Source: Pseudonocardia humida (GTDB lineage: Bacteria > Actinomycetota > Actinomycetes > Mycobacteriales > Pseudonocardiaceae). From it: a DNA stretch of 64,000 nucleotides. Positions 47,556 through 63,291 of this stretch are shown piece by piece. A program made the position numbers and the translations under genes. Below the pieces are notes generated by a model, which saw only the letters and a program-made list of their open reading frames with translations, was not told where the DNA came from and did not search any database. How positions within the stretch are numbered: the stretch's first letter is position 1; each line of letters opens with the position of its first letter. The stretch spans positions 62,001 through 126,000 of the forward strand of contig NZ_JAGSOV010000040.1 of NCBI RefSeq assembly GCF_023898865.1, read 5' to 3'.

Positions 47556-47862
47556 CGGCTCTCCTCGACGTGCGGCAGGTCCCCGCTGATCCTCAGCCCT
47601 CCCCGCCCGCTGGGCAACCACCCCACCCCAACCGCACCGGCTCACCGAGCCCGGCCGCCGGCGAACGGCGCCCTCGACCAGCAGGTTGGGCGAACGCGCC
47701 ACCCGCCCGCCCGACCTCACCCCGGTTGGGCGTACGGCGCGCTGGGCCGACCAGGCTGGGCACCGCCCCACTCGTTCGCCCGGCCCCTCCGGCCCGGGTT
47801 GAGCCAACGGCGCTCCCGCCCAAGGAGACTGGCCCGCCGCGCCACTCGCTCGCCGGTTGGGA

Positions 47863-48230
47863 CGAGAGTCGCGCTCACCCCGCCGGACGCAACGAAAGTC
47901 GCGTTCGCTCCGCAGGGCGCAACGGAAGCCGCGTTCGCTCCACCGGGTGCAACGAGAGTCGCGCTCGCCCTACGGGGCTGGGCGGACGCGCCACTCGCTC
48001 GCGGTGGGACGAGAGTCGCGTTCGCTCCTCGGGGCGGAACGAGAGTCGCGCTCGCGCCGCCGGGCGGAACGAGAGTCGCGCTCGCTCCTCGGGGCGGAAC
48101 GAGAGTCGCGCTCGCTCCCCAGGACGCAACGAAGTCGCGCTCGCCCAACGAGGCTGGGCGGACGCGCCACTTGCTCGCGGTGGGCCGAGAGTCGCGTTCG
48201 CTCGACCGGGCGCAACGAGAGTCGCGCTCG
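47863..48230. repeat. Array A: eleven 30-bp units with interspersed 27-bp modules
   Basis: Units with the core ACGAGAGTCGCG begin at 47863, 47893, 47923, 47953, 48010, 48040, 48070, 48100, 48130, 48186 and 48216. Spacing is exactly 30 except where a 27-bp module (GGCGGACGCGCCACTYGCTC) is inserted, giving 57 and 56. One unit (48130) has lost a base, breaking the frame. Copy 2 keeps only the outermost part of this array, so it has expanded or contracted. Confidence 0.8.
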
Positions 48231-48710
48231 CGCCCCGGCGAGGCGGCGCGCAGCACCGCGAGCGGGGCGAGGCACGGGGCGCGTAGCGCCCACCTCACCC
48301 CCGGAAGTGCTCCCCTGCCGTCGCCTCGGCGCGCACGGCGCAGCGCCTCCGGCGCCGGCCCGCACCCCGCCACGTGTTCGGAGCCGCGGACGGCGCAGCG
48401 GAGCGGAGCCGGGAAGCGGCGGGGTCCGGCGCCTGCGGTAGCGGGTGGTGGTGGGGTGTGGGTCGGTGTCGGAGGTGTTTCGATGGGTGGGTCGAGGTGG
48501 CGGCAGGGGAGCACTTTCCCACCCCCTGCTGGAGCTGAGGTCGTCCGCCGCGGAGGCGCCGCCGGAGGCGCAGTAGGCCGCAGCGTTGGCGGGCGGCGCG
48601 CCCGGCCCGAGGCTCAGCTCATGGACAGGTGAAGAGCGCGCCTGCGCGGCGGGCGACCTCGGATCGAGCAGGGGTCCGGCCCCTGCCCTCACGCCGACCC
48701 GCCCAGGGTT

Positions 48711-48793
48711 GCACGCCCGGGAAAACCCCCGCACGGCTGGCATCCACGCGCTGCGGTCGGCAGCGGAGGGTGCGGGGGCCTTCCGGGCGCGCA
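48711..48793 (-). ncRNA. Candidate long stem inside element copy 1 (minus-strand RNA)
   Basis: On the minus strand the arms at 48793-48770 and 48734-48711 pair through a GC-rich stem with G-U pairs (GGCC side opposite GGTT side) and one bulged base. Copy 2 forms the same stem from its plus strand. On the opposite strand the same positions would be A-C mismatches, so if this is RNA the strand is predicted. No promoter was identified. Confidence 0.35.
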
Positions 48794-48896
48794 CGCTGAG
48801 CGTGCCGACGTGACGGCAGGGGCCTCGGGAGAGGAGCGGGGCGCTGACGCGCCCCGGGGCTCCTCGCCTCCGGCGCTGCGCGCCGCATCGGGCGGG

Positions 48897-49250
48897 ACGA
48901 GCACTGCTTTCGTCGCGTCCGGTAGAACGAGCGCGACTCCCGTCGCGTCCGGTAGAACGAGCGCGACTCCCGTCGCGCCCGGTAGAACGAGCGCGACTCT
49001 CGTTGCGCCCCAGACGAGAGCGGCTCTCGTCCCACATAGCCGGGCGAATCTGGCTCTCGTCCCACATAGCCGAGCGAGAGTGGCTCTCGTCCCACATAGT
49101 GGGGCGAATGCGGCTCTCGTTCCAGGTAGCCGAGCGAGAGTGGCTCTCGTGCCACGTGGCGGGGCGAGAGTGGCTCTCGTGCCACGTGGCGGGGCGAGAG
49201 TGGCTCTCGTGCCATCCACCCGAGCGAGAGGGGCGCTCGACCCACGTGCT
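48897..49250. repeat. Array B: about twelve 30-bp units, perfectly in phase
   Basis: From about 48897 to 49250 the unit changes by substitution only; the central dyad is CGAGAGTGGCTCTCG (6-bp arms, 3-nt centre) in the best copies at 49136, 49166 and 49196, and CGAGCGCGACTCCCG in the older-looking ones. A period of 30 bp equals about three DNA turns and also ten codons. No spacers, so it is not CRISPR. Confidence 0.8.
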
Positions 49251-49331
49251 TGGCCGAGCGCGCCGTTCGCTCAAGCAGGGCGAGGGAAGCGTCCCGGGAC
49301 CGCCGCCCGGCGGTCGAGCAGGAGCGCTCGG

Positions 49332-49523
49332 TCAGCCCTCGAGCCGGATCGCGGCGCGCGGGCAGGCCTTGACGGCCTCCTCGAGCTTGGGGCGCAGCTC
49401 TTCCGACGGGTTCTCGTCGAGGATGTAGAGGTAGTCGTCGTCCCGTACCTCGAACACCTCGGGGGCGATGCCCATGCAGATGGCGTTGGACTCACACAGA
49501 TCGAAGTCGACCACGACCTTCAT
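49332..49523 (-). CDS. Small [3Fe-4S]-type ferredoxin
   Basis: 63 aa, ATG 49523. VDFDLCESNAICMGIAPEVF and VKACPRAAIRLEG give Cys10, Cys16 and Cys54 (C-x5-C...C-P), the three-Cys set of actinobacterial 3Fe-4S ferredoxins; the position of the fourth Cys is occupied by Ala/Met. These proteins feed electrons to cytochromes P450 or other oxidoreductases. No P450 gene is next to it. The 3' end faces element copy 1. Confidence 0.92.
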   Translation of the reverse strand: MKVVVDFDLCESNAICMGIAPEVFEVRDDDYLYILDENPSEELRPKLEEAVKACPRAAIRLEG

Positions 49524-49615
49524 GACCCCATGGTGCACCCGCCCGGCTCGGGCGGGAAGCCGGGGTACCGGGTACGGGTACCCTCACCAGGGCTTTGGGT
49601 GACCTAACCCGGGTG

Positions 49616-49786
49616 TCAGCGGCCGGCGGTGGTGGCCGGGCCGTGCTGGGGCACGCGGACGGTGGCGGCCGCGGACGGGCCCGGGTCGGGTGGGAAGGCG
49701 GTAGTCGCGGTCAGCATGCCGGCGGCGACCCCGGCGCTGATCAGGGCGCAGACGAGGGCGGTTCGGCGGGATACGCACAGGCGCAC
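49616..49786 (-). CDS. Small membrane or secreted hypothetical protein
   Basis: 56 aa if started at GTG 49786, where GAGGA lies 8 bases upstream. VRLCVSRRTALVCALISAGV then AAGMLTATTAFPPDPGPSAA: a basic N-terminus, one hydrophobic helix and a Pro/Ala tail, like a short signal-anchored peptide. The frame is open further upstream but that part is low-complexity. No family recognised. It may be a chance ORF. Confidence 0.4.
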   Translation of the reverse strand: MRLCVSRRTALVCALISAGVAAGMLTATTAFPPDPGPSAAATVRVPQHGPATTAGR

Positions 49787-49985
49787 TTCGGCGTCCTCTC
49801 GGGGCGGGGTGGCCCGGGCGGGGGCGGGGGCCGCGGCAGCGGCCGTCCCCCGGACCATCACGCCGGCCCCGCCCGGCGTTAACAGCCCGGTGACGTGATC
49901 CCGCCAGATTGCGCTGATCGGCGGTACAGGGACCACTGAAAGGTGGCGGAGCGCGGGTAACAGAGGTGACCCGCACCGCCAGGGT

Positions 49986-51863
49986 TCAGGTGCGGCGCAG
50001 GACCGGGCGCAGGGCGTCCAGCACGCCGGCGTCGTCGATGGTGGAGGGGACCGGCTCGTCGGCGCCGTCGGCGATGCCGCGCATCGTCTTGCGCAGGATC
50101 TTCCCGGAGCGGGTCTTGGGCAGGGCGGGCACGACGGCGACGTCCTTCAGCGAGGCCACCGCCCCGACCTGGTTGCGCACCAGCGCCACCAGCTCCGCGC
50201 GCAGCTGCTCCTCGTCGACCTGGACGCCCGCCTTGAGCACGACGAACCCGCGCGGCACCTGGCCCTTCATCGCGTCCGCCACGCCGATCACGGCGCATTC
50301 GGCGACGGCGGGGTGCGTGGCGAGCACCTCCTCCATGCCGCCGGTGGACAGCCGGTGCCCGGCCACGTTGATGACGTCGTCGGTGCGGCCCATGACGTAG
50401 ACGTAGCCGTCGGCGTCGATGCGCCCGCCGTCGCCGGTGAGGTAGTAGCCGTCGAACGTCGACATGTACGAGCGGACGAACCGCTCGTCGTCGTTCCACA
50501 GGGTCGGCAGCGAGCCCGGCGGCATCGGCAGCTTCACCACGATGGCGCCGTCGGTGCCGGGCTCGACGGGGTTGCCGGAGCCGTCGAGCACCCGCACGTC
50601 CCAGCCGGGCAGCGGGCGGGTGGGGGAGCCCGGTTTGATCTCCAGCAGCTCGATGCCCGCGGGGTTGGCCACGATCGGCCAGCCGGTCTCGGTCTGCCAC
50701 CAGTGGTCGATGACCGGGATGCCGAGCAGCTCCGACGCCCACCGGTAGGTCTCCGGGTCGAGCCGCTCGCCGGCCAGGAACAGGTACCGCAGTCCGGACA
50801 GGTCGTACTCGGCGAGCAGCTTGCCCTCCGGGTCCTCCTTCTTGATCGCCCGGAACGCGGTGGGCGCGGTGAACATGCTCTTGACGCCGTTCTCGGCGAC
50901 CACCCGCCAGAACTGCCCGGCGTCCGGGGTGCCCACCGGCTTGCCCTCGTAGAGCACGGTCGTGGCGCCGGCCAGCAGCGGCGCGTAGACGATGTAGGAG
51001 TGCCCGACGACCCACCCGACGTCGGACGCGGTGAAGATCGTCTCCCCGGCCCCGACGTCGTAGACGTTGGGCATCGACCAGGCCAGTGCGACGGCGTAGC
51101 CGCCGCCGTCGCGCACCACGCCCTTGGGCTTCCCGGTCGTGCCCGACGTGTAGAGGACGTAGAGCGGGTCGGTGGCCTTGACCGGCACGCAGGCGGCGGG
51201 CTCGGCGCCGGCCATCGCCCCGGCCCAGTCGACGTCGTCGGGTCCCATCTGCGCGGTGGCCTGCGGGCGGGCCAGGATCACCCGCTTGGCGGGCCGGTGC
51301 GCGGCCAGCTCGATGGCGCGGTCGAGCAGCGGCTTGTACTCGATGACCCGCTTGCCCTCGATGCCGCAGGACGCCGAGACGATCACGGTGGGCCGGGCGT
51401 CGTCGATCCGGACGGCGAGCTCCTTGGCCGCGAACCCGCCGAACACGACGGAGTGCACCGCGCCGATGCGGGCGCAGGCCAGCATGGCGACGGCGGCCTC
51501 CGGGACCATCGGCATGTAGATCACGACGCGGTCGCCGCGGCCGACGCCGAGGCCGACCAGCACGCCGGCGAACCGGGCCACCTCATCGCGCATCCGCGCG
51601 TAGCTGTAGGTCCGCTTGGTGCCGGTGACGGGGGAGTCGTAGACCAGCGCGGCCTGCTCGCCGCGGCCGGCGTCGACGTGGCGGTCGAGGGCGTTGTGGC
51701 AGACGTTGAGCTCGCCGTCGGGGAACCAGCGGTAGAACGGCGGCCGGGCGCCGTCCAGGGCGCGGGTGGGCTCGACGTGCCAGTCGAGGGAGCGGGCCGC
51801 GGCCAGCCAGAACCCCTCCGGGTCGTCCGTGCTGGACCGGAAGACGTCCTCGTAGGCGCCCAC
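49986..51863 (-). CDS. Propionyl/acetyl-CoA synthetase (AMP-forming)
   Basis: 625 aa, GTG 51863 with GGAGG six bases upstream. Acs/PrpE features: VYDSPVTGTKRTYSYARMRD, LYVLYTSGTTGKPKGVV, HSVVFGGFAAKELAVRIDDA, HWWQTETGWPI, GYYLTGDGGRIDADGYVYVM, GRTDDVINVAGHRLSTGGME and the regulatory Lys motif SGKILRKTMR that is acetylated in the family. Length and the start (AYEDVFRSSTDDPEGFW) favour the PrpE branch, activating propionate or acetate. It stands alone, divergent from the GDSL gene. Confidence 0.92.
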   Translation of the reverse strand: MGAYEDVFRSSTDDPEGFWLAAARSLDWHVEPTRALDGARPPFYRWFPDGELNVCHNALDRHVDAGRGEQAALVYDSPVTGTKRTYSYARMRDEVARFAGVLVGLGVGRGDRVVIYMPMVPEAAVAMLACARIGAVHSVVFGGFAAKELAVRIDDARPTVIVSASCGIEGKRVIEYKPLLDRAIELAAHRPAKRVILARPQATAQMGPDDVDWAGAMAGAEPAACVPVKATDPLYVLYTSGTTGKPKGVVRDGGGYAVALAWSMPNVYDVGAGETIFTASDVGWVVGHSYIVYAPLLAGATTVLYEGKPVGTPDAGQFWRVVAENGVKSMFTAPTAFRAIKKEDPEGKLLAEYDLSGLRYLFLAGERLDPETYRWASELLGIPVIDHWWQTETGWPIVANPAGIELLEIKPGSPTRPLPGWDVRVLDGSGNPVEPGTDGAIVVKLPMPPGSLPTLWNDDERFVRSYMSTFDGYYLTGDGGRIDADGYVYVMGRTDDVINVAGHRLSTGGMEEVLATHPAVAECAVIGVADAMKGQVPRGFVVLKAGVQVDEEQLRAELVALVRNQVGAVASLKDVAVVPALPKTRSGKILRKTMRGIADGADEPVPSTIDDAGVLDALRPVLRRT

Positions 51864-52071
51864 GCCTGGCCTCCTCGCCGTCGCGCCGGACCCCGCGGCC
51901 CGGGTGCTCGACCCGACCCTAGGACGCGCGCCCTCCGCCGGGCAGGTCCGTAGAGCGCCGATCGGCCTCCGACGGCCCCGCGCCCTCCCCGATTGGCGGG
52001 TGTAGTAGCCCGTTCCACCGGCTACTGCATGCCCGCTCTGCTGTACGGCGTAACGATATGTGACGATAGGC

Positions 52072-52081
52072 CTACATGTAG
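52072..52081. promoter_or_regulatory. CTACATGTAG palindrome in the prpE/GDSL divergent region
   Basis: A perfect 10-bp palindrome three bases before the GDSL ATG, in an AT-richer stretch (52050-52085). Could bind a regulator or be part of the promoter; unproved. Confidence 0.3.
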
Positions 52082-52084
52082 TGC

Positions 52085-53527
52085 ATGTCGCTTGGTGTGG
52101 ACGGTGCGGGAACCGCGTCGGCGTTCGGGTTCAAGCGGCTGGGATCGCGCGGGCGCGACATCGCGCGGGGGGTGAGCGGGCTGATGGGGCGCAGGCATGG
52201 CCGTCCGGTCGGGTGGCGTCCGGTCGTGGACCGCTTCCAGCTGGGCCTGGCGGTGGCGGCCTCCTGCCTCGCCGGGCTGGTGCTGGCCGTACCGGGCTCC
52301 TACGGGGTCGGGCCGGTCGCCCAGGCGGGCGCCGCGCCCGGGGTCATCGCCTGCGCCCCGGCGTGGATCACCGGCTGGCAGGCCGCGCCGCAGGCCGCCG
52401 CCACCGAGGACGGCCTGGCCGGGACCACGCTGCGGATGATCGTGCTCCCGCAGGTCAGCGGCTCGCAGCTGCGCCTGCGGCTGTCCAACGCCTACGGCGC
52501 GACCCCGCTGGAGGTCGGGGCGGTCTCGGTGGCCCGCGCCGGCGAGGGCGCCGCCCTGGCCGAGGGCACCCAGCGCACGGTCACGTTCACCGACGAGCCG
52601 CGGGTCGTCATCCCGGCGGGCGAGGAGGTCGTCAGCGACCCCGTGCCGCTGCACGCCGAGTCCGGCATCGCGCTGGCCGTCAGCGTCTTCCTGGTCACCG
52701 TCCCGGAGCGGATCACCCGGCATGCCGTGGCGCTGCGGACGTCGTTCCGGTCCGGCCCGGGGGACGCGACCCTCTCCGACGCGTCGGCGTTCCCGGACAG
52801 CGTGAACTCCTGGTCGGTGCTGACCGGCCTCGACGTGTTCACCGCCCGCCCGGTCAACGCGCTGGTCGCCGTGGGCGACTCGATCACCGACGGCGTGGGC
52901 AGCGGCGTCGACGTCGACGAGCGCTGGACCGACGCGCTCACCCGCAGGCTCACCGACCCCGCGGCGCTGCCCGGGGCCCGGATGGTGGTGCTCAACGCCG
53001 GGATCTCCCGCAACCGCCTGCTCGCCGACGACGCGGAGCGCGACGGCGACTCCCCGCTGACCCGCTTCGAGCGCGACGTGCTCGACCCCTCCGGCGCCAC
53101 CGACGTGGTGCTGCACATCGGTACCAACGACATCGCCGTCGGGCACAACGCGACCGAGGTGGTCGACGGCCTGCGCCAGTACGTGGCCCGCACCCGGGCC
53201 GAGGGCAGGCGGATCTACCTGACCACGATCACGCCGTCGACCGCCGGCGCGCACGGCACCCGGGGCGCGATCGGCACGCGCAACGCCGTCAACGCCTGGA
53301 TGCGGGCCCAGGGCCCGCTGATGTCGGACGGGGTCTTCGACTTCGCCGCGGCCGTGGCCGACCCGGCCGACCGCGACCGGCTGGCCCCCGCGTACGACTC
53401 CGGCGACGGGCTGCACCTGTCGGCGGCGGGCTACCAGGCGCTGGCCGACGCGGTGGACATCACCCGGCTCAGCGGGAGCCCCTGCCTCGGCGAGACCCCG
53501 GCCGCCCGGGCGGCGCCGGGGCGGTGA
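52085..53527 (+). CDS. Secreted SGNH/GDSL-family hydrolase
   Basis: 480 aa from ATG 52085; an ATG at 52184 is a possible later start. A hydrophobic signal (LGLAVAASCLAGLVLAVPGS, residues about 52-71) follows a long basic N-terminus. Block I is VAVGDSITDG (catalytic Ser), block III is LHIGTNDIAVG and block V is DSGDGLHLSAAGY (Asp-x-x-His). Before it is a beta-sandwich (about residues 100-250). These are extracellular esterases or carbohydrate/lipid deacylases. Divergent from prpE. Confidence 0.88.
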   Translation: MSLGVDGAGTASAFGFKRLGSRGRDIARGVSGLMGRRHGRPVGWRPVVDRFQLGLAVAASCLAGLVLAVPGSYGVGPVAQAGAAPGVIACAPAWITGWQAAPQAAATEDGLAGTTLRMIVLPQVSGSQLRLRLSNAYGATPLEVGAVSVARAGEGAALAEGTQRTVTFTDEPRVVIPAGEEVVSDPVPLHAESGIALAVSVFLVTVPERITRHAVALRTSFRSGPGDATLSDASAFPDSVNSWSVLTGLDVFTARPVNALVAVGDSITDGVGSGVDVDERWTDALTRRLTDPAALPGARMVVLNAGISRNRLLADDAERDGDSPLTRFERDVLDPSGATDVVLHIGTNDIAVGHNATEVVDGLRQYVARTRAEGRRIYLTTITPSTAGAHGTRGAIGTRNAVNAWMRAQGPLMSDGVFDFAAAVADPADRDRLAPAYDSGDGLHLSAAGYQALADAVDITRLSGSPCLGETPAARAAPGR

Positions 53528-53572
53528 GCGCCGCCCGCGGCGATCTCGGCTGTGACCTGGCACACTCGAGGC

Positions 53573-53833
53573 ATGGCCCGTGGCAGGCGCAGACCGGAGC
53601 GGCGGCCGGGACGGCAGAGCCGCGACCCGGTGCCCGCGCACGTCGTCGACCCGTTCGACGTCCTCGACGTCCTCCCGCTCGCAGACCCGGACGACCCGGA
53701 CGACGGCCTGGGGGGTTCGGCGGGCGTGCGGGAGCCGCGCAGACCGCTGCCCCTCGGGCCGATGTCGGGCGCGGGGGCGCTGCCGGAGCCGACCCCGTTC
53801 CTGGTCGCCACTCTGCCCGATCCGCGCCGCTGA
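53573..53833 (+). CDS. Hypothetical protein, low complexity
   Basis: 86 aa, ATG 53573: a very basic start (MARGRRRPERRPGRQSRDPV) then an acidic, Pro/Asp-rich middle (DPFDVLDVLPLADPDDPDD). No domain seen. It follows the GDSL gene by 45 bp on the same strand and converges on the RHH-like gene (13 bp). Probably expressed but unassigned. Confidence 0.5.
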   Translation: MARGRRRPERRPGRQSRDPVPAHVVDPFDVLDVLPLADPDDPDDGLGGSAGVREPRRPLPLGPMSGAGALPEPTPFLVATLPDPRR

Positions 53834-53846
53834 GCGGCGGCGGCAG

Positions 53847-54296
53847 CTAGTCCTCGCGGCGCGAGCGCCTGCCCAGCTTGCGCAGCGGGCTGCGGCGGCG
53901 CTTCTCGGCCTCCTCGACGACGGCGAACGGCCCGGTCGGGGTGTCCTCGCGGTCGAGCCGGTCGATCACCCAGTCGACGGCGAGCGCGCCCGGCGACACC
54001 CCGCGCTCCTGGGCGATCCGGCGCAGCTGCTCGATGCGCAGCGCGGGCAGCCGCAGCTGGAAGACCTGGGCGTGGCCGAAGCCCCCGGTCAGCGAGGGGT
54101 CGTCGGTGGTCGGGGCGAGCGCGGCCAGGTAGGAGTCGAGCTCGACGTCCGCCGGCGCGGCGACGGCGTCGTCCCGGGGGTCGGCGCGCCGGCCCGGTGC
54201 CGTGCGCGGCGCGGGCACCGAGCGGTGCCGGGGGCCCGGCTGCGGCGGCGGGCCCTGCTGGGGCAGGGGCCCGGGCGGCGGGAGCGGGTACGACAT
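53847..54296 (-). CDS. Proline-rich protein with C-terminal ribbon-helix-helix-like segment
   Basis: 149 aa, ATG 54296 (MSYPLPPPGPLPQQGPPPQP). The first 60 residues are disordered Pro-rich; residues 85-120 (VFQLRLPALRIEQLRRIAQE then RGVSPGALAVDWVIDRLDRE) have the strand-helix-helix pattern of CopG/RHH DNA-binding proteins, as in antitoxins. The tail is basic (KRRRSPLRKLGRRSRRED). No toxin-like gene lies beside it. DNA-binding is inference. Confidence 0.55.
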   Translation of the reverse strand: MSYPLPPPGPLPQQGPPPQPGPRHRSVPAPRTAPGRRADPRDDAVAAPADVELDSYLAALAPTTDDPSLTGGFGHAQVFQLRLPALRIEQLRRIAQERGVSPGALAVDWVIDRLDREDTPTGPFAVVEEAEKRRRSPLRKLGRRSRRED

Positions 54297-54363
54297 GGGT
54301 GGAGGGTACGGGCGCGGCGGACGGGGGCCCCCCCGCCCGCCCCCGGGGGGGCACGGGGGGGCC

Positions 54364-54387
54364 GGGGGGGGGGGGGGGGGGGGGGGG
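54364..54387. repeat. 24-base G homopolymer within a C/G-only tract (54300-54420)
   Basis: 24 consecutive G, flanked by shorter C and G runs. Could form G-quadruplex structure or be a base-calling/assembly artefact. It separates the RHH-like gene from the HMA gene. Confidence 0.6.
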
Positions 54388-54466
54388 CCCGGGGCGCGGC
54401 GCCCGCCCCCCCCCGCCCGCCCCGCGGGTCGTCCGGTGGTCGCCGGGAGTAGGGGTGGTGGCGCGG

Positions 54467-55583: not shown

Positions 55584-55633
55584 CGGTACAGTCCGCTGTA
55601 CCGTCCGTTCTCAGCAACACATGTTCCAAGCAA

Positions 55634-55707: not shown

Positions 55708-55740
55708 CTCCACGATTCGTCCGGTGCTCTGCACCGGCAC

Positions 55741-56066: not shown

Positions 56067-57401
56067 GTGCGTGTGCCGAGGCCGAACCCGCTGGCCGTCA
56101 GCACGTGGGCGGTGTGGTCGCTGCCCGGGCGCGTCCTGGGCACCGTCGTCGCCGTCGTGCTGCTCACCGCGGCCGTGCTCGTGCTGCAGGTGCTCTCCCT
56201 GCCGGCCGCGCTGCCCCCGAACTGGGGCTGGACGCTCGTGGTGCTCGCCGTGGCCGCCGTCATCGGCACCGAGGCCTCGCTGGGCACCGAGCGCCGCCGC
56301 CGCCGCACCGACTCCAGCCCGCACATCGACCTCAGCTCCGTGTGGACGTTCGCCGCGGCGGCCCTGCTGCCGGGGGCGCTCGCGGCGGTCGTCGTCGTGA
56401 TCGTCTACGGCCACCTCTACGCCAGGGCGTGGCGCCCGGACGCGATCCCGCCGCACCGGGTGGTGTTCAGCGCGGCCGCGATCGTGCTGTCGGTGCAGGC
56501 GGCCGCGGTGGTCGTCGCCGCGGTCGACCCGGCCGAGCGGTTCCGCAGCCTGGTCGGGCTGCTCGTCGTCGCCCTCGCGCTGCTGGCCTACGCCGCGGTC
56601 AACATGCTGCTGGTGGTCGGGGTCATGGTGCCCACCGGCACCGCACCGGACATGGCCACGTTCCGCCGCCTACTCGGGCCGCTCGACGAGGCCGTCCTGG
56701 AGTTCGCGACGCTGTCGATGGGTGCGCTGGCCGCCGGGGCCATGGCCGCGTTCGGGCCGGCCTACGCGGCGTTCGTGCTGCCCACGCTCTTCGTCCTGCA
56801 CCGCACGGTGCTGGTCCGCCAGCTCGAGGAGGCCGTCGACACCGACGGCAAGACCGGCCTGCTGAACTCGGCCGGGTGGCACGTGCGCGCCACCCGCGCG
56901 CTGCGCCGCAGCGAGCTGGCCGACGCCCAGGCCACCGTGCTGGTGCTCGACATCGACCACTTCAAGCAGGTCAACGACGACCACGGGCACCTCGTGGGCG
57001 ACCAGGTGCTCGCCGCCGTGGCCGCCGCGGTGAAGGCCGAGGTCCGCGAGGAGGACCTGGTCGGCCGGTTCGGCGGGGAGGAGTTCGTGGTGCTGCTGGC
57101 CGGTCTGGACGGCGACCACGACCCGGCCGCCGCGCGCACCGTCGCCGAGCGCATCCGCCAGCGCATCGCGGACCTGCGCGTGGTCGTCGAGATCGGCGAG
57201 CCGCCGCGCCAGGTCGAGGTCGGCGAGCTGACCGTGTCCATCGGCGGCGCCACCTTCCCGTCCGACGGCAGCGAGCTCGTCCAGCTGGTCGAGGGCGCCG
57301 ACACGGCCATGTACGCGGCCAAGCGGGCGGGGCGCAACAAGGTGCGCATCGGGGTCGAGCCGGTGGCCGGCGCGGGGGCCGGCCCCCTCCCGCTGGCCTG
57401 A
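56067..57401 (+). CDS. Membrane-bound GGDEF diguanylate cyclase
   Basis: 444 aa, GTG 56067 with GGAGGAG upstream. Residues 20-255 contain about seven helices (MASE-like sensor); the GGDEF domain follows (about 260-430). The active site GGEEF is residues 336-340, with VLDIDHFKQVNDDHGHLVGD as the metal/GTP site. The product-inhibition I-site R-x-x-D (REED, 327-330) lies five residues before GGEEF, as in feedback-inhibited enzymes. It should make c-di-GMP in response to a membrane signal. Followed after 2 bp by the MftR-like gene. Confidence 0.93.
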   Translation: MRVPRPNPLAVSTWAVWSLPGRVLGTVVAVVLLTAAVLVLQVLSLPAALPPNWGWTLVVLAVAAVIGTEASLGTERRRRRTDSSPHIDLSSVWTFAAAALLPGALAAVVVVIVYGHLYARAWRPDAIPPHRVVFSAAAIVLSVQAAAVVVAAVDPAERFRSLVGLLVVALALLAYAAVNMLLVVGVMVPTGTAPDMATFRRLLGPLDEAVLEFATLSMGALAAGAMAAFGPAYAAFVLPTLFVLHRTVLVRQLEEAVDTDGKTGLLNSAGWHVRATRALRRSELADAQATVLVLDIDHFKQVNDDHGHLVGDQVLAAVAAAVKAEVREEDLVGRFGGEEFVVLLAGLDGDHDPAAARTVAERIRQRIADLRVVVEIGEPPRQVEVGELTVSIGGATFPSDGSELVQLVEGADTAMYAAKRAGRNKVRIGVEPVAGAGAGPLPLA

Positions 57402-57403
57402 CC

Positions 57404-57994
57404 GTGCGCCGCCCGGTCACTTCGCGCGCGGAGATCGAGCACATCGCGCTCGACCTGTTCAGCGCCCGCGGCTTCGACACCACCACCGTCGACGACATCG
57501 CGGCGGCGGCGGGCATCGGACGGCGCACGGTCTTCCGCTACTACGCCTCCAAGAACGACATCCCGTGGGGCGCGTTCGACGAGCAGCTCGACCGGATGCG
57601 CGAGACGTTCGCCGCGCTGCCCGACGAGCTGTCGGTGCTGGCCGGGGTGCGGGCCGCGGTGCTGTCGTTCAACGACGTCCACCCCGACGAGCTGCCGTGG
57701 CACCGCAGGCGGCTGCGGCTCATCCTGGGCACGCCCGCGCTGCAGGCGCACTCCACGCTGCGCTACGCGGCCTGGCGGCGGGTGGTCGCCGAGCACGCCG
57801 GGCGCCGCCTCGGGCTGCCGGTCGACGGGCTCGTCCCGCAGGCCATCGGGCACGCCAGCCTCGGCGTCGCGCTGGCCGCCTACGAGCGCTGGCTGGACGG
57901 CGGCGGCGACCTGCACGCCCTGCTCGACGAGGTGTTCCGGGCCCTGGAAGCCGGTCTGGACCGGACGGCGGACATCGGTCCGGCCGGAAGGTGA
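57404..57994 (+). CDS. MftR-like TetR-family regulator (mycofactocin system type)
   Basis: 196 aa, GTG 57404, two bases after the GGDEF stop. TSRAEIEHIALDLFSARGFD then TTVDDIAAAAGIGRRTVFRY and YASKNDIPWGAFDEQLDRMR, plus WHRRRLRLILGTPALQAHST, are the diagnostic segments of MftR, the acyl-CoA-sensing repressor beside mycofactocin biosynthesis genes. No mftA-F genes are in the window. Co-transcription with a diguanylate cyclase is unusual. It may be an orphan paralogue. Confidence 0.85.
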   Translation: MRRPVTSRAEIEHIALDLFSARGFDTTTVDDIAAAAGIGRRTVFRYYASKNDIPWGAFDEQLDRMRETFAALPDELSVLAGVRAAVLSFNDVHPDELPWHRRRLRLILGTPALQAHSTLRYAAWRRVVAEHAGRRLGLPVDGLVPQAIGHASLGVALAAYERWLDGGGDLHALLDEVFRALEAGLDRTADIGPAGR

Positions 57995-58067
57995 TCTTCG
58001 TTGGGCCGGGCGTCGCATCCCGGTCCCCAGGCGTTACCGGGTGCTGCTCGGCGCGCTCCGACCGTGA

Positions 58068-58241
58068 TAGGTTTCGGCCTGGTTGCAGTCGTTCCTCCTC
58101 GATCGTTGTGAAGCGTCCGTGGAAGTTGACGGTGGGCTTCACAGGCGTGGGTAGAGGCACTCTGCGTTCGTCGGTGTTTCCCGTGCAGCCACCCGGTCGG
58201 CACAGTGCCGGCAGGATCCGCTTCACGTATGGAGATCAGGT
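58068..58241 (+). promoter_or_regulatory. cspA promoter and ~160-nt leader with two alternative stems
   Basis: TAGGTT at 58068-58073 is a good -10 candidate. The leader has GTGAAGCG (58108-58115), which can pair either with GCTTCAC (58136-58142) or with CGCTTCAC (58219-58226); the latter ends 15 bases before the start codon and near the GGAG (58231). Such exclusive pairings resemble cold-shock mRNA switches. Structure is inferred, not tested. Confidence 0.5.
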
Positions 58242-58445
58242 ATGCCGCAGGGCACCGTCAAGTGGTTCAACGCCGAGAAGGGCTTCGGCTTCATCGCGAC
58301 CGACGACAACGGTCCGGATGTGTTCGTCCACTACTCGGCCATCCAGTCGGACGGCTTCCGCACGCTCGAGGAGAACCAGCGGGTCTCCTTCGAGGCGAGC
58401 CAGGGCGCCAAGGGCCCGCAGGCCGACACGGTCCGCCCCATCTGA
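58242..58445 (+). CDS. cspA: Cold shock protein CspA
   Basis: 67 aa, ATG 58242 with GGAG seven bases upstream. [15 protein letters not shown] (RNP1-type) and [10 protein letters not shown] (RNP2-type) are the nucleic-acid binding motifs. Acts as an RNA chaperone that melts mRNA structure. Long leader and a strong downstream hairpin mark it as an independent unit. Confidence 0.97.
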
Positions 58446-58469
58446 GCCCAGCTCCGTCAGGAGCTCCTC

Positions 58470-58502
58470 GAGGCCGGTGACCCCACGGGGGTCACCGGCC
58501 TC
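58470..58502 (+). terminator. Terminator of cspA
   Basis: GAGGCCGGTGACCCC/GGGGTCACCGGCCTC: a 15-bp perfect stem with a 3-nt loop (ACG), 25 nt after the cspA stop. No U-tract. Confidence 0.85.
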
Positions 58503-58544
58503 GGTGCGTTCCGGGGTGGCGCCGTCGCGGACCCGACGCGACGC

Positions 58545-59459
58545 TCAGCTGAGCGCGGGCCCCAACCAGTCGGCGGTGATCGCGATGCCCTCATCCACCC
58601 CGCGCGGGGCGTAGCCGAGCGCCCGCGCCCCGCTGTCGTCCACCCGCACCGGCGGGAACTTGCCGTAGACCTCCGAGCGCCGGGCGAACGTGCCTGCGCC
58701 GTCGGGCAGCGTGGCGCCCGGCGGCAGCGTCTCCACCCGCCGTCCGCCGGTCCGGTCGGCGAAGGCGTGCAGCACCCGCCCGAAGGAGGCGGCCTCCCCG
58801 CACAGCACGTACCGCCGCCCCGGCTCGCCCCGGTCCAGCGCCAGCAGGTGCCCGGCGGCGGCGTCCTCGGCCAGCACCCAGCCCACCCGCGAGTCCACGA
58901 TCACCGGCTCGTCGCCGCGGGCGGCGGCCAGCAGCAGCTCGTTGTAGGACTCCGGGCCGCGCGGGCTCGGTCCGTAGATGCCGGTCGGGCAGGCGACCAC
59001 GGTCTCGATGCGCCCGTCGGCGAGCACCAGCGCCTCGGCGGCCGCCTTGCTCGTCGAGTACGGGTCGGTGAGGGCGGGCGGGCCCGCGGGCTCCTCGGCC
59101 ACCACGCCGTCGGCGTCGATGATCGCCGCGCTGCTGCTGGTGAGCACGAACCGCTCGGCGCCCGCCGCGACCGCCGCCTCCAGCGCCCGGCGGGTGCCCT
59201 CGACGTTGGCCCAGCGGGTCTGCTCCGCGGTGCCGCCCACCGCACCGGCCGCGTGCAGCACGCCGGTGCACCCCCGGGCCGCCCGGGCCAGTGCCTCCTC
59301 GTCGGCCAGGTCGGCCACCGCGACGTCGACGCCGGGCGGCAGCACCGCCGCGGCCCGCTGCGCGTCGCGCACGACCGCGCGCACGTCGCGGCCCTCCCGC
59401 ACGGCCAGCGCGACCAGCGCGCTGCCCAGGTACCCGCCTGCTCCGGTGACCATCAACAT
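58545..59459 (-). CDS. NAD-dependent epimerase/dehydratase-family (extended SDR) protein
   Basis: 304 aa, ATG 59459 (MLMVTGAGGYLGSALV); ATG 59453 two codons later is an alternative. GAGGYLG is the NAD-binding glycine motif; the catalytic segment is SSSAAIIDADG with Ser, and Tyr/Lys in DPYSTSKAAAE (YxxxK). Pattern close to dihydroflavonol-reductase/epimerase-like proteins. It likely reduces or epimerises a small molecule; substrate unknown. Confidence 0.88.
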   Translation of the reverse strand: MLMVTGAGGYLGSALVALAVREGRDVRAVVRDAQRAAAVLPPGVDVAVADLADEEALARAARGCTGVLHAAGAVGGTAEQTRWANVEGTRRALEAAVAAGAERFVLTSSSAAIIDADGVVAEEPAGPPALTDPYSTSKAAAEALVLADGRIETVVACPTGIYGPSPRGPESYNELLLAAARGDEPVIVDSRVGWVLAEDAAAGHLLALDRGEPGRRYVLCGEAASFGRVLHAFADRTGGRRVETLPPGATLPDGAGTFARRSEVYGKFPPVRVDDSGARALGYAPRGVDEGIAITADWLGPALS

Positions 59460-59585
59460 GGCGCCATCGTGGCAGTCACCGCTGACCGACGGCGCCCCGC
59501 GACGACCGGTTCCGCGCCGTGGTCGGGCGAGGTTGCCACCGCCGGTCTCCGTTCGCCCTCCGTTCATCCGGCCCGTCACCGATGC

Positions 59586-59618
59586 CGAGCGGTTTTGTCA
59601 AGAGGCAAAATCCGCTCG
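59586..59618. promoter_or_regulatory. AT-rich inverted repeat between divergent SDR and primase-like genes
   Basis: CGAGCGGTTTTG and CAAAATCCGCTCG pair with one bulged base across 8 nt. It is the most AT-rich spot in the 284-bp gap (59460-59743) and could be an operator or promoter part. The rest of the gap shows no gene. Confidence 0.45.
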
Positions 59619-59743
59619 TCTCGGCGTGCGGCGCGGTCGTCGCTGTGGCCTCCACTACCCGTTCCCGACCCGTCATGCTCGGTGTTGAGCCTCACAGAAC
59701 ACGCCGAACGGCAGGGGTTCACGAGACGCATCGGAGGTCCGGG

Positions 59744-60259
59744 ATGTCCGGCTGGGACAGCTACCGCACCGTGTACTGCGCGGAGCTGCGCGCCGCAGCC
59801 CGTGAGTTCGACGACCACGGCTGGCCCGTCGTGGTGCAGGGCGACGACACGGTGCTCCTGATCACCGGTGCGGCGTTGGACGTCCTCGAGGTGCCCGCCG
59901 CCGACGGCAAGCGGATGTGCGTGATCCTGCGCGACGCCGGCGCCGTGGTGCCGGTCGCCGCCACCCCGACGGGGTCCTGGTGGTACCCGATCACCTCGGG
60001 CGCCGCCCTGCCCACCGAGCTGCGCGACGTCGACGGCGTGCGGCTGCACACCGCGGGCGCCACCGTGCTGGCCCCGCCCTCCACCGTCCCCGACGGCTGG
60101 GTGCACTGGCGGGTCTCCCCGGCCCTGACCGGCTACCGCGTGCCCCCCGCCGACCTGATCCTGAGTGCCGCCGTGGACTCCGTCCGCCGCCGCGCCGACC
60201 TCGACCGCAACCCGGGTGCCCAGCGGCCCGCGGAGATGGTCGCGATGGGCGGGCGGTAA
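59744..60259 (+). CDS. Protein resembling a bifunctional DNA primase/polymerase N-terminal domain
   Basis: 171 aa, ATG 59744 with GGAGG eight bases upstream. Pattern WDSYRTVYCAELRAAAREFD then DDHGWPVVVQGDD, LDVLEVPAADGK, VAATPTGSWWYPI and VHWRVSPALTGYRVP matches short actinobacterial proteins related to the Prim-Pol fold that occur outside replicons. The catalytic acids of true Prim-Pol are not evident. Function unknown; the neighbours give no hint. Confidence 0.65.
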   Translation: MSGWDSYRTVYCAELRAAAREFDDHGWPVVVQGDDTVLLITGAALDVLEVPAADGKRMCVILRDAGAVVPVAATPTGSWWYPITSGAALPTELRDVDGVRLHTAGATVLAPPSTVPDGWVHWRVSPALTGYRVPPADLILSAAVDSVRRRADLDRNPGAQRPAEMVAMGGR

Positions 60260-60398
60260 CGACACCGCAAGAGCCGGTTCCCCGGCCCACCTCCCGCTGA
60301 CGCGGCTCGTCGCGCCGCGCCGGGAGGTCCGGGGAAGCCGGTGGTGCGGCGCCCGAGGGGGCACTTCTCCCTCGTCGCGCGGCCGCACCACAAAACGT

Positions 60399-60432
60399 GG
60401 CCGGGGTCGGTGGAACACCACCGACCCCGGCC
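60399..60432. terminator. Hairpin after the primase-like gene
   Basis: GGCCGGGGTCGGTGG/CCACCGACCCCGGCC, 15-bp stem with an AACA loop. Located 139 bp after the stop. Confidence 0.75.
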
Positions 60433-60562
60433 AGACCCACTTCCCGGCACGGCGCGGGCCGAACGCCGCGCCCCCCCCCCCCCGCGGGGGGGGGGGGGGG
60501 GCGCCCCCCCCCCCCCCCCCGGCCAGACCCACTTCCCGGCACGGCGCGGGCCGAACGCCGCG
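60429..60562. repeat. 42-bp direct repeat around a C13-GC-G16-CG-C17 tract
   Basis: The 42 bases at 60429-60470 recur exactly at 60521-60562. Between them lie only C and G runs (60471-60520), palindromic in pattern. True repeat or assembly artefact cannot be told. No gene in 60260-60718 otherwise. Confidence 0.7.
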
Positions 60563-60718
60563 CCACCGCGGCGCTGCCCCCGGCCGGGCCCGCCTGCCCG
60601 GCGACCGGGCACCGGGAGCCGGGACGGGCCGTGGGGCGGGAACCCCGGACCAGCGCGACCGCGCCGCGCGGCGGCCGTCCCGACGCCCGATCATCGGCCG
60701 GACGGGCAAGATGGGCAT

Positions 60719-62083
60719 GTGCAGAATCCCGGGTCCACCCGATCGGGCGTGAACGCCCCCGAGGCCTCGCCCCCCGAAACCGGCCGCGGTCGCCGCTCCG
60801 TCCCGATCGTCGAGGTCGGCCTGGGTTTCGGCCGGGTCGACGCGGCCACCAAGGCCAAGGACCTGCGGCGGATGAAGATGTTCGCCACCGGGCTGCTGCT
60901 CGCCGCGACCGTCGTCTTCCTGCTGGCCCGCATCTGGGAGGTCAACGACGGCCCCACCTGGATCGGCTACGTCCGGGCCACCGCCGAGGCCGGCATGGTC
61001 GGCGCGCTGGCCGACTGGTTCGCCGTCACCGCGCTGTTCCGCCACCCCCTCGGCCTGCCCATCCCGCACACCGCGATCATCCCGACGAAGAAGGACGCCT
61101 TGGGCGACAGCCTGGGCGACTTCGTCGGCGAGAACTTCCTCTCCGAGGACGCCGTGCGCGCCCGCCTGGCCGGCGTCGACATCTCGGCCAGGGTCGGCAC
61201 CTGGATCGCCCAGCCGGAGAACGCCGACCGGATCACCGCCGAGCTGGCCACGGCCGCCCGCGGCGTCGTCACCGTCCTGCGCGACGACGACGTCCAGGAG
61301 GTCATCGAGCAGGTCCTGGTGCGCAAGCTGCTGGAGAAGGAGATCGGCCCACCCCTGGGCACGGTCCTGCAGGGCGTCCTCGCCGACGGCTCCCACCGCC
61401 GCCTGGTCGACCTGGTCATCGACCGCGCCTACGACTGGATCGCCGCCAACCAGGAGATGGTGCTGCGGATCGTGCAGGACCGGGCCCCGAGCTGGTCGCC
61501 GCGCTTCGTCGACTCCCTCATCGCCGACCGGGTGTTCCTGGAGGTGCAGAACTTCGCCTGGGCGGTCAAGACCGACCCAGAGCACCCGCTGCGCAAGGCC
61601 GTCGACACGTTCCTCGTCGAGTTCGCCACCGACCTGCAGAACGACCCCGAGACCATCGAGAAGGCCGAGCGGATCAAGCACCAGATCGTCGAGCAGCCCG
61701 AGGTCCAGCGCTTCATCGGCCAGGCGTGGGGCACCGTCAAGGCCCTCATCCTCGACGCCGCCGCCGACCCGTCCAGCGCCCTGCGCACCCGCGTCCGCGA
61801 CGGCCTGGTCGCCTTCGGCGAGCGCCTCGACTCCGACCCCGAGCTCCGCGGCAAGATCGACGGCTGGATCGCCGACGCCGCCGGCTACGTGGTGCGCCAC
61901 TACCGCCACGAGATCACCACCCTGATCACCGACACCATCGCCAAGTGGGACGCCGAGGAGACCTCCCGCAAGATCGAGCTCCAGGTCGGCCGCGACCTCC
62001 AGTTCATCCGCATCAACGGCACCGTCGTGGGCGCGTTGGCGGGCCTGCTCATCTACACGATCAGCCATCTCCTGATCGGCTAG
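60719..62083 (+). CDS. DUF445-family membrane protein
   Basis: 454 aa, GTG 60719. Two membrane segments: near residues 55-72 (FATGLLLAATVVFLLARIW) and at the C-terminal end (VGALAGLLIYTISHLLIG). The DUF445 signature is GMVGALADWFAVTALFRHPL and GLPIPHTAIIPTKKDALGDS, followed by a long alpha-helical region. Family function is unknown; members appear as envelope-associated proteins. Element copy 2 begins immediately after the stop. Confidence 0.9.
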   Translation: MQNPGSTRSGVNAPEASPPETGRGRRSVPIVEVGLGFGRVDAATKAKDLRRMKMFATGLLLAATVVFLLARIWEVNDGPTWIGYVRATAEAGMVGALADWFAVTALFRHPLGLPIPHTAIIPTKKDALGDSLGDFVGENFLSEDAVRARLAGVDISARVGTWIAQPENADRITAELATAARGVVTVLRDDDVQEVIEQVLVRKLLEKEIGPPLGTVLQGVLADGSHRRLVDLVIDRAYDWIAANQEMVLRIVQDRAPSWSPRFVDSLIADRVFLEVQNFAWAVKTDPEHPLRKAVDTFLVEFATDLQNDPETIEKAERIKHQIVEQPEVQRFIGQAWGTVKALILDAAADPSSALRTRVRDGLVAFGERLDSDPELRGKIDGWIADAAGYVVRHYRHEITTLITDTIAKWDAEETSRKIELQVGRDLQFIRINGTVVGALAGLLIYTISHLLIG

Positions 62084-62160
62084 CCCCAGGCCTCGCTTGA
62101 GCGAATGGCGCTCTCGCCCAAGCAGGTGGGTCGAGCGGCCCTCCCGCTCGGGGTGGAGGG

Positions 62161-62390
62161 GACGAGAGCCACTCTCGCCCCGCCATATGACACGAGAGTC
62201 ACTCTCGCTCGGCTGTGTGGGACGAGAACCACTTTCGCTCTGCTACCTGGGACGAGAGCCACTTTCGCTCGGCTGTGTGGGACGAGAGCCGCTCTCGTCC
62301 GGTGCGCAACGGGAGTCGCTCTCGTTCTATCGGGCGCGCCGAAAGCCGCGCTCGTCTCGACCGCGCGCGACGAAGTCGCGTTCGTCTCGC
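62161..62390. repeat. Array B' of 30-bp hairpin units
   Basis: Seven or eight units: 62161, 62191, 62221, 62251, 62281 are exactly 30 apart, then 27 and about 30. Dyad forms include CGAGAGCCACTCTCG and CGAGAGTCACTCTCG. Confidence 0.75.
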
Positions 62391-62492
62391 TCGATGCGGC
62401 GCGCAGCGCCGTGAGGCGAGGGAACGCCGGGGCGCGTCAGCGCCCCGCTCCTGTCCCGAGGCCCCTGCCGTCACGTCGGCGCGCTCAGACGT

Positions 62493-62573
62493 GCGCGCCC
62501 GGAAGGCCCCCGCACCCTCCGCTGCCGACCGCAGCGCGTGGATGCCAGGCGTGCGGGGGTTTTCCGGGCGTGC
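62493..62573 (+). ncRNA. Candidate 23-bp stem in element copy 2 (plus-strand RNA)
   Basis: 62493-62515 pairs with 62551-62573 over 23 bp with three G-U pairs and no mismatch; the 35-nt loop holds an inner CGCTGC/GCAGCG stem. Only plus-strand RNA keeps those pairs. No promoter identified. Confidence 0.4.
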
Positions 62574-63291
62574 AACCCTGGGCGGGTCGGCGTGAGGGCA
62601 GGGGCCGGGCCCCCTGCTTGATCCGAGGCCGCCCGCCGCGCAGGCGCGCTCTTCACCTGTCCATGAGCTGAGCCTCGGGCCGGGCGCGCCGCCCGCCAAC
62701 GCTGCGGCCTACTGCGCCTCCGCGGCGGGCGACCTCAGCTCCAGCAGGGGGAGAAGTACTCCCCTGCCGCCACCTCGATCCGCCCATCGAAGCACCTCCG
62801 TCACCGACCCGCACCCCACCACCACCCGCCTTCGGCGGGCGCCGGGTGCCGCCGCTTCCCGGCTCCGCTTCGCTGCGCCGTCCGCGGCTCCGAACACGTG
62901 GCGGGGTGCGGGCCGGCGCCGGAGGCGCTGCGCCGTGCGCGCCGAGGCGACGGCAGGGGAGCACTTCCGGGGGTGGGCGGCTGCGCGCCCGGGGGCTCGC
63001 CCCGGCTCGCGGCGCTGCGCGCCGCCTCGCCCGGGGCGCGAGCGCGACTCTCGTCCCGTCCGGCGAGCGAGTGGCGCGGCGGGCCAGTCTCCTTGGGCGG
63101 GAGCGCCGTTGGCTCAACCCGGGCGGGAGGTGCCGGGCGAGCGAACGGCGCGGCGGGCAGGCTTCGTTGGGCGAGAGCGCCGTTCGCTCACGTTGAGGTC
63201 GCCAATGCCCAGGTCAGCGGGGCGAGAGTGGCTCTCCGCGACCCCGTCCCGCCCGTCGAATGCGCTACCACGAGTAAGCCTCGTCACGACT

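What the first reader, a model, noticed from the sequence alone, without database searches (positions are those of the whole stretch)
47690..63190. Inverted pair of long non-coding repeat elements around a 13-kb segment
Copy 1 (about 47690-49275) and copy 2 (about 62095-63190) share a conserved core and hairpin arrays in opposite orientation. The inner ends both close with CGCTCAAGC-type sequence. Frameshifts between copies rule out a protein, yet long exact runs remain, suggesting function or recent copying. The segment between them (ferredoxin, prpE, tRNAs, GGDEF, cspA, DUF445) could invert by recombination. I know of no named family that fits; related low-complexity arrays may be annotated as proteins in other genomes.
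Basis: seen in the sequence. Interest (0 to 1): 0.82.

Follow-up and report, generated by a model that had tools for sequence, protein, structure and literature searches.

The report
Dispersed giant hairpin repeats in Pseudonocardia
The two inverted elements belong to a large family of non-coding, hairpin-forming DNA repeats scattered behind genes in this Pseudonocardia, and their core hairpins are related to hairpins beside the replication gene of small integrated mobile elements in other species, which hints at where such repeats can come from.

Summary
In detail: copy 1 (47684-49285) and inverted copy 2 (about 62085-63200) share a core 96% identical outside gaps. "Inverted pair around a segment" is not supported. 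They are 2 of 55 element-bearing intergenic regions in the 14% of this 8.29-Mb genome that I read (regions picked around hits). The sister species P. lacus lacks both, and the segment has one orientation in all 8 other genomes where I could test it.

Each element is palindromic: 30-bp palindromic arrays flank three giant tandem hairpins (A, B, C), each bounded by CCCCTGC...GCAGGGG. I found no predicted gene, no strand signature of RNA selection and no RAYT. Elements are enriched between convergent genes.

New: hairpin C is homologous to a hairpin 354-462 bp from a Rep_1 rolling-circle initiator in 12 other Pseudonocardia genomes (FtsK/TraB-like gene on the other side in 5 of 5 tested), near a conserved CTTGGTA. 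B has kin there too. The core thus looks like an escaped replication-origin (sso-like) hairpin set, dispersed in two sister species without a Rep_1 match. All 8 close DUF222-HNH gene copies end at a hairpin foot, so they are a candidate driver. Homology is shown; direction, sso function and dispersal enzyme are inferred.

The parts
47684..47861 (+). copy 1, left outer palindromic units (GGTTGGGCGAACGCGCCACCCGC type)
   Evidence: repeat families D11 and D5 and inverted arm I5 to copy 2; starts where collinearity with P. lacus ends, 47624
47862..48232 (+). copy 1, left array of 30-bp palindromic units (CGAGAGTCGCGCTCG core)
   Evidence: 40 window matches of the unit versus 7.1 expected from shuffles
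48233..48301 (+). copy 1, left cap, roughly an inverted copy of the right cap
48302..48521 (+). copy 1, hairpin A, feet CCCCTGC at 48312 and GCAGGGG at 48503
   Evidence: (fold of 48290-48530, -180.6 kcal/mol)
48522..48678 (+). copy 1, hairpin B, feet CCCCTGC at 48523 and GCAGGGG at 48668
48679..48826 (+). copy 1, hairpin C, feet CCCCTGC at 48680 and GCAGGGG at 48816; homologue of the hairpin beside Rep_1 in other Pseudonocardia
48827..48900 (+). copy 1, right cap
48901..49245 (+). copy 1, right arrays of 30-bp units (two types)
49246..49285 (+). copy 1, inner end (CGCTCAAGC)
   Evidence: (I23)
62085..62381 (-). copy 2, inner end and right array
   Evidence: (I1, I23)
62382..62457 (-). copy 2, right cap
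   Evidence: L002 coordinates shifted to the window
62458..62605 (-). copy 2, hairpin C
62607..62751 (-). copy 2, hairpin B
62748..62970 (-). copy 2, hairpin A
62971..63201 (-). copy 2, left cap and outer units; most of the left array is missing

Best explanation
The two elements are members of a family of dispersed, composite, non-coding palindromic repeats that act at the DNA level. A mosaic of short 30-bp palindromes (REP/BIME-like) carries a core of up to three giant hairpins with a common foot, CCCCTGC...GCAGGGG. The core hairpins (C firmly, B well, A marginally) are relatives of hairpins in the non-coding stretch between a TraB-like FtsK gene and the Rep_1 rolling-circle initiator of integrative elements in other Pseudonocardia. 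I read that stretch as the element's origin region (sso-like hairpins followed by a dso-like CTTGGTA). In the ancestor of this species and P. lacus the hairpins left that replicon, lost the nick-like motif, and multiplied as non-autonomous DNA, with single-strand or double-strand-break processing at the hairpin foot as the likely step. They persist mainly behind genes, where they break no promoter and probably act as strong two-way transcription barriers. Shown: family, anatomy, placement, lineage-specific copies, homology of C to the Rep_1-adjacent hairpin, absence of RAYT and of Rep_1 matches in the two genomes, physical link to DUF222-HNH genes. Inferred: direction of descent, sso function, the enzyme that copies them, the effect on transcription.
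For: Family: 120 BLAST matches in the own genome and 55 element-bearing intergenic regions in 1.14 Mb (49 core, 6 array only; 12 at edges). Modules combine freely, and each hairpin in both window copies has CCCCTGC and GCAGGGG feet. Placement, 43 non-edge regions: convergent/tandem/divergent 21/19/3 against 64/341/172 background; Fisher 7e-9 (convergent) and 7e-4 (divergent). Lineage-specific: P. lacus has 108 bp and about 12 bp of unaligned sequence where this genome has 1.7 and 1.15 kb. Origin: in 62 Pseudonocardia genomes, model R1 hits 17; of the 15 other than own and P. lacus, 12 have the hairpin 354-462 bp from a Rep_1 match, and 5 of 5 tested upstream genes are FtsK/SpoIIIE. A palindrome-preserving shuffle control gives C 60 and 58 against a maximum of 32 and 35 (0 of 100 each). 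Tree: 11 Rep_1-linked hairpins split from 40 dispersed ones at 100/95. CTTGGTA in 10 of 12 of those regions, in 0 of 55 dispersed ones. A tyrosine integrase was found near 4 of 4 hairpins examined. Rep_1: none in own or P. lacus. DNA-level: G.T versus A.C mispairs 14 to 11, and B orientation relative to transcription 9 to 7 in 16 tandem sites.
Against: Direction is not proven: the tree only separates the two sets, and the element could have captured a dispersed hairpin. 3 of 15 non-sister hairpin genomes (G079, G028, G085) do not have the hairpin next to Rep_1, and G072 and G084 have Rep_1 without a hairpin match. In other genera of the family, hairpin kin occur without a detected FtsK or Rep relative (tblastn). 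A barely exceeds its shuffles, and one of three B copies does not. No enzyme was seen to move the hairpins; no clear target-site duplication at the two window sites (by eye). Orthologous hairpin C-B in L086 and P. lacus L142 shows that some copies are old. In P. lacus the divergent depletion is not significant (p=0.15).
Confidence: 0.6

Rival explanations
1. A DUF222-HNH (13E12-type) element is the real driver: it homes to or carries the hairpin, and the free hairpins are its leftovers or targets.
For: 8 of 8 own copies of one HNH subfamily (86-100% identical to L150) end at a hairpin foot, CCCCTGC plus a C or B arm; 3 of 4 P. lacus copies (65-67% identical) do too. Their 5' ends share GTTGCGAT with unrelated flanks beyond. 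A locus with the hairpin in both species has the HNH gene only here.
Against: Most hairpin sites have no HNH gene. P. lacus L242 and the ninth own DUF222 gene (L223, 58%) lack the hairpin. Hairpins beside Rep_1 in G005, G007 and G023 have no HNH link found. Several own HNH copies are frameshifted or interrupted. No target was shown to be cut.
Confidence: 0.25
2. The hairpins are an old palindromic repeat family of Pseudonocardiaceae, and one was captured as an origin hairpin by the Rep_1 element.
For: Seven genomes of other genera have full-length R1 matches, G199 with nine. Six tested hairpins beat all 100 palindrome shuffles against the Rep_1-linked set. In G199, 8 of 9 lie between convergent genes.
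Against: Inside Pseudonocardia, 12 of 15 non-sister genomes with a hairpin have it next to Rep_1. The other-genus hairpins are less close to the window's C (1 of 6 beats all shuffles).
Confidence: 0.25
3. A structured RNA or 3'-UTR element selected for its RNA fold (terminator, sponge or riboregulator).
For: Very stable folds; both window copies have the same orientation relative to transcription; behind genes; C arms pair better within a copy than between copies (p=1.2e-6, 33 copies) and 6 of 30 pairs show two-sided changes.
Against: No orientation bias over 16 tandem sites (9 to 7). No G.U excess over A.C (14 to 11). A and B arms show no within-copy preference (p=1.0 and 0.75). Outer arms pair no better with their own partner. 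No Rfam match in 46000-64000 except three tRNAs. Fast turnover between sister species.
Confidence: 0.08
4. An inverted-repeat cassette that flips the 13-kb segment.
For: Long, nearly identical inverted copies; recombination between them is possible in principle.
Against: 8 of 8 testable genomes have the same orientation. The family has dozens of other copies. No recombinase is linked.
Confidence: 0.03

Closest known systems
REP / BIME / REPIN with RAYT (PMC2817692, PMC3733652; passages seen)
   Same: Dispersed intergenic palindromes, mosaic arrays, species-specific, behind genes, a nuclease-type gene abutting a hairpin (as RAYT genes abut REPs)
   Different: No RAYT: the only Y1 transposase is an IS200/IS605 member. 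Hairpins of 150-215 nt rather than 20-40 bp units. Foot CCCCTGC/GCAGGGG rather than a GTAG or CGTC tag. The core is related to a hairpin beside a replication gene.
Single-strand origin (sso) of rolling-circle plasmids and ICEBs1 (PMC4595007, PMC5714925; passages seen)
   Same: Non-coding stretch of stem-loops beside the initiator gene; the pBAA1 and ICEBs1 sso has three important stem-loops
   Different: Activity not tested here; the dispersed copies lie outside any replicon and lack the CTTGGTA motif
AICE, actinomycete integrative and conjugative element (PMC3218068; passages seen)
   Same: Source loci in other Pseudonocardia combine an FtsK/SpoIIIE gene, a rolling-circle Rep and a tyrosine integrase, two of them beside a tRNA
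   Different: Rep is Pfam Rep_1; element ends and transfer not determined; the window holds only related hairpins
DSO-gene-SSO elements (PMC5037232; passages seen)
   Same: Published proposal that rolling-circle origins let flanking DNA move without a transposase
   Different: Described for plasmid genes of Staphylococcus, not for dispersed chromosomal hairpins
13E12 / DUF222-HNH repeats
   Same: The genes joined to hairpins are DUF222 plus HNH by Pfam
   Different: The window elements carry no such gene; the name 13E12 is recalled

Membership tests
REP/RAYT palindromic repeats | High-copy intergenic palindrome | tested here: met
REP/RAYT palindromic repeats | Cognate RAYT (REP-associated tyrosine transposase) in the genome | tested here: not met
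   one Y1_Tnp match in the genome; 132 bits for IS200 (cut-off 55) but 28.2 for REP_Tyr_transpos (cut-off 80)
REP/RAYT palindromic repeats | Unpaired GTAG or CGTC tag at one end | tested here: inconclusive
   foot is CCCCTGC/GCAGGGG; CGTC occurs inside the stem (CCCCTGCCGTC), not as an unpaired tag
MITE | Terminal inverted repeats | tested here: met
   about 20 strongly conserved bases at each end of C in 35 aligned copies (one own copy, L075, left out)
MITE | Target-site duplication and parent transposon with the same ends | tested here: inconclusive
   no clear duplication by eye at the two window sites; no parent with both ends recognised among the sites read
AICE (source loci) | FtsK/SpoIIIE Tra protein | tested here: met
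   5 of 5 upstream genes tested
AICE (source loci) | Rolling-circle or Prim-Pol replication initiator | tested here: met
   Rep_1 within 354-462 bp of the hairpin in 12 genomes
AICE (source loci) | Site-specific integrase, tRNA attachment site | tested here: inconclusive
   tyrosine integrase near 4 of 4 loci examined, tRNA beside it in 2; element ends not mapped
Rolling-circle single-strand origin | Orientation-specific second-strand priming | not testable with these tools
   needs a plasmid assay
Structured RNA | Strand-specific covariation or transcript | tested here: not met
   no G.U over A.C excess, no orientation bias; transcripts not testable

The most novel reading that the evidence does not exclude
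Replication-origin hairpins of a rolling-circle integrative element have become a self-spreading, RAYT-independent repeat family: origin hairpins are a source of REP-like chromosomal palindromes, with a DUF222-HNH nuclease gene riding at the hairpin foot, and comparable dispersal may have happened more than once in the Pseudonocardiaceae (nine hairpin kin in G199).
Probability: 0.35. Interest if true: 0.88.

Novelty: new variant of a known kind. Interest (0 to 1): 0.7.

Why it matters
How REP-like repeats arise, and what copies families that lack a RAYT, is open (PMC3733652 states that CGTC REPs seem to lack a dedicated transposase). Here is a family with a plausible molecular ancestor, the hairpins beside the Rep_1 gene of an integrative element, and with a nuclease gene fixed to the hairpin foot. 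Both links can be tested. If right, replication origins join transposon ends as a source of dispersed bacterial palindromes. It would also explain many assembly breaks in such genomes: 12 of 55 element regions lie at a contig or region edge.

Tried and rejected
Rejected: RAYT-driven REP; a protein-coding core; a known Rfam RNA; invertible segment; an outer stem tuned to its own partner arm (within-copy -29.6, between-copy -36.2 kcal/mol, p=0.029 in the opposite direction); orientation tied to transcription, as first suspected from the two window copies (16 tandem sites: 9 to 7). Led nowhere: an attempt to compare palindromes after the DUF445 gene in 30 genomes, where frames were often missed; a tblastn run with an invalid option (repeated); a failed script (repeated) and a failed tree (redone). 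The first tree counted P. lacus hairpins twice, once per strand; one search keeps one row per hairpin. Rows dropped: L075 left out of alignment A1 but kept in the tree; G065 (near-identical to G024) left out of the tree and of the CTTGGTA count; 12 edge regions left out of the placement test. One of the 3 divergent cases in that test, L149, arises because its frameshifted HNH gene was not predicted. The regions read were picked around hits, so the count of sites is not a genome-wide density. Counts are capped at 50 scored candidates per genome and read palindromes on both strands (P. lacus 14 matches = 7 hairpins). The CTTG-type nick site of pC194-like replicons and the name 13E12 are recalled, not from a call. 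Literature: ten searches; I saw listings and, for six papers, passages found by term, no whole paper. None of the listings shows these elements; that is all I can say about print.
Full report
CHECK. The repeat finder gives long inverted arms at 94-97% complementarity. Over the three core hairpins 489 of 537 aligned columns are identical, 28 being gap columns. A codon-model gene finder trained on 41 stretches of this genome finds no gene in either copy, and Rfam finds only three tRNAs in 46000-64000.

ANATOMY. The core is three tandem hairpins: A 48302-48521, B 48522-48678, C 48679-48826. Each is bounded by CCCCTGC and GCAGGGG, and so are the three of copy 2. Folded as single strands, the stretches around them give -181, -115 and -104 kcal/mol. 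Caps that are roughly inverted copies of each other and arrays of 30-bp palindromic units flank the core, so the minimum-energy fold of copy 1 is one nested palindrome with A, B and C at its tip. The outer pairing follows from the palindromic arrays: the two sides of a copy pair no better with each other than with those of other copies (21 copies).

FAMILY. The core query gives 120 BLAST matches in this genome. I read 1.14 Mb of it, chosen around hits, and found 55 element-bearing intergenic regions: 49 with core modules, 6 with arrays only, 12 at contig or region edges. Modules combine as A-B-C, B-C, A-B, C-B-C', or single hairpins. The end motif CCCCTGCCGTCRCGTCG, with up to one mismatch, has 84 matches here and 20 in G067; the other 60 genus genomes have 0-4 each, much like the reversed control. 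The short palindrome CGAGAGNNNCTCTCG has 75 sites here, 45 in G067, 31 in G084, 10 in G072, 6 in G035 and at most 4 in the others. G067 is Pseudonocardia lacus: its contig of 52,339 bases is the only one returned by a scan of the named genome collection for a C hairpin with both ends (genomes very near the window's own may be left out of that scan).

PLACEMENT AND TURNOVER. Of 43 non-edge regions 21 lie between convergent, 19 between tandem and 3 between divergent genes, against 64, 341 and 172 for 577 other intergenic regions in the same stretches (Fisher 7e-9 for convergent, 7e-4 for divergent). In P. lacus the figures are 9, 8 and 4 against 20, 93 and 62; convergent enrichment p=9e-4, divergent depletion not significant (p=0.15). 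Both window sites are empty in P. lacus: about 108 bp instead of 1.7 kb at site 1, and at site 2 only a single 30-bp-type hairpin just after the DUF445 stop. The AMP-binding gene and the DUF445 gene (Pfam) keep their relative orientation in all 8 genomes, P. lacus included, where both lie on one contig; 5 of the 13 genomes given to could not be tested. The C hairpins of the two window copies are each other's nearest relatives (99/99), so the pair is probably a recent local duplication.

DNA OR RNA. In the C alignment (35 copies, 30 pairs) 6 pairs have two-sided changes, and C arms pair better within a copy than across copies (p=1.2e-6, 33 copies), but A (6 copies) and B (28 copies) do not. G.T and A.C mispairs are about equal, 14 and 11, and B lies in either orientation relative to transcription (9 and 7 of the 16 tandem sites listed). 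This fits maintenance as DNA palindromes better than selection on a transcript.

WHERE THE HAIRPINS COME FROM. A covariance model of C (R1), run over 62 Pseudonocardia genomes, hits 17. Besides this genome (49 matches, capped) and P. lacus (14 matches, 7 hairpins read on both strands), 15 genomes have one to three matches. In 12 of these 15 (G005, G007, G023, G061, G063, G014, G024, G065, G002, G022, G076, G027) the hairpin is 354-462 bp from a match to Rep_1 (PF01446); G024 and G065 look near-identical. In G085 it is 3.1 kb away, and in G079 and G028 there is no Rep_1. Five upstream genes were tested and all five are FtsK/SpoIIIE; where that gene is predicted, the hairpin starts some 20-40 bases after its stop. 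After C follow GCGACCCCCTGC and a B-like arm, as in the own loci L086 and L082, then a further hairpin and CTTGGTA in 10 of 12 regions examined, but in none of 55 dispersed regions. A tyrosine integrase lies near 4 of 4 such hairpins that I annotated, beside a tRNA in two. This is the gene set given for AICEs in PMC3218068 (passages). PMC5714925 assigns Rep_1 to pC194/pUB110-type rolling-circle initiators, and PMC4595007 describes an sso with three stem-loops.

IS IT HOMOLOGY. BLAST already gave 73% identity over 171-186 bp to G023 and G005. Against shuffles that keep the palindrome, C scores 60 and 58 versus maxima of 32 and 35 (0 of 100 each). B scores 48 and 44 versus 32 and 36 (0 of 60 each), but the third B copy scores 34 versus 36 (2 of 60 reach it). 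A scores 44 and 46 versus 41 and 45 (0 of 60 each) and 40 versus 42 (3 of 60). So C is secure, B likely, A marginal. In the tree the 11 Rep_1-linked hairpins and the 40 dispersed ones form two sets (100/95; bootstrap not settled; root not fixed). Own and P. lacus have no Rep_1 match, and no FtsK or Rep relative occurs in the stretches of either that I read.

THE HNH LINK. Eight own DUF222-HNH genes (86-100% identical to L150) all end at a hairpin foot: GGTCCCGAAG or close, then CCCCTGC, then a C or B arm. Of four P. lacus copies at 65-67% identity, three do. In five other genomes no DUF222 gene that could be read to its end shows such an arm; one (L236) has the 7-mer alone. At one locus the C-B hairpin is shared by both species while the HNH gene is only here. 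This resembles RAYT genes next to REPs (PMC2817692, passages).

BEYOND THE GENUS. In 298 genomes of the order, 9 match R1 at 1e-4; 7 of these belong to other genera of the same family, with up to 9 matches in G199 (10 candidates scored per genome). Six tested hairpins beat all 100 palindrome shuffles against the Rep_1-linked set. In G199 8 of 9 lie between convergent genes. No FtsK or Rep relative was found near them with Pseudonocardia queries.

MECHANISM, WITH ODDS. Family of mobile non-coding palindromes: 0.97. C homologous to the Rep_1-linked hairpin: 0.9. That stretch is an origin region: 0.6. The dispersed set derives from it and not the reverse: 0.6. HNH as present driver: 0.25-0.3; a Rep-type enzyme in trans: 0.3; otherwise general repair or template switching. 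PMC5037232 proposes that rolling-circle origins mobilise flanking DNA without a transposase (passages), which makes an origin-based route plausible.

VERDICT. Real; not an inversion cassette; works like a REP/BIME family but is not one by the RAYT test; a new variant of a known kind, with an unusual and testable ancestry.

Noticed in passing
window 9097-9413: A short array of two 30-bp palindromic units in another intergenic region, classed as convergent: a further member of the array family without core.
   Followed up: partly
L150, L082, L091, L217, L086, L149, L222, L224 (own genome): Eight near-identical DUF222-HNH genes, several frameshifted or interrupted, each ending at a hairpin foot.
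   Followed up: yes
G199 loci L319-L326; L312-L317: Hairpins of about 140 nt with TIR CTTGGTGGTCATCCCGTCGCC in other genera of the family; in G199 eight of nine lie between convergent genes. Independent dispersal?
   Followed up: partly
L077 9860-10700; L080: A second palindromic array type (CACCGCGCACA...TGTGCGCGGTG) beside the hairpin cores.
   Followed up: no
L306 (G061) 5497-6744: HK97-type major capsid gene between the integrase and the Rep_1-hairpin-FtsK block; possibly a phage-satellite-like element or two neighbouring elements.
   Followed up: no
window 59744-60259: Small protein with a weak Prim-Pol match (PF09250, 2.6e-5) inside the segment between the copies.
   Followed up: no
L086 9921-11236 and L142 9910-11216: Orthologous C-B hairpin in this species and P. 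lacus, with sequence to its left unrelated: the hairpin foot coincides with a rearrangement breakpoint.
   Followed up: partly
L100 (C59): The only Y1 transposase of the genome, an IS200/IS605 element with its TnpB-type gene beside it.
   Followed up: yes
window 54355-54387: Run of 33 bases that is 93% G.
   Followed up: no
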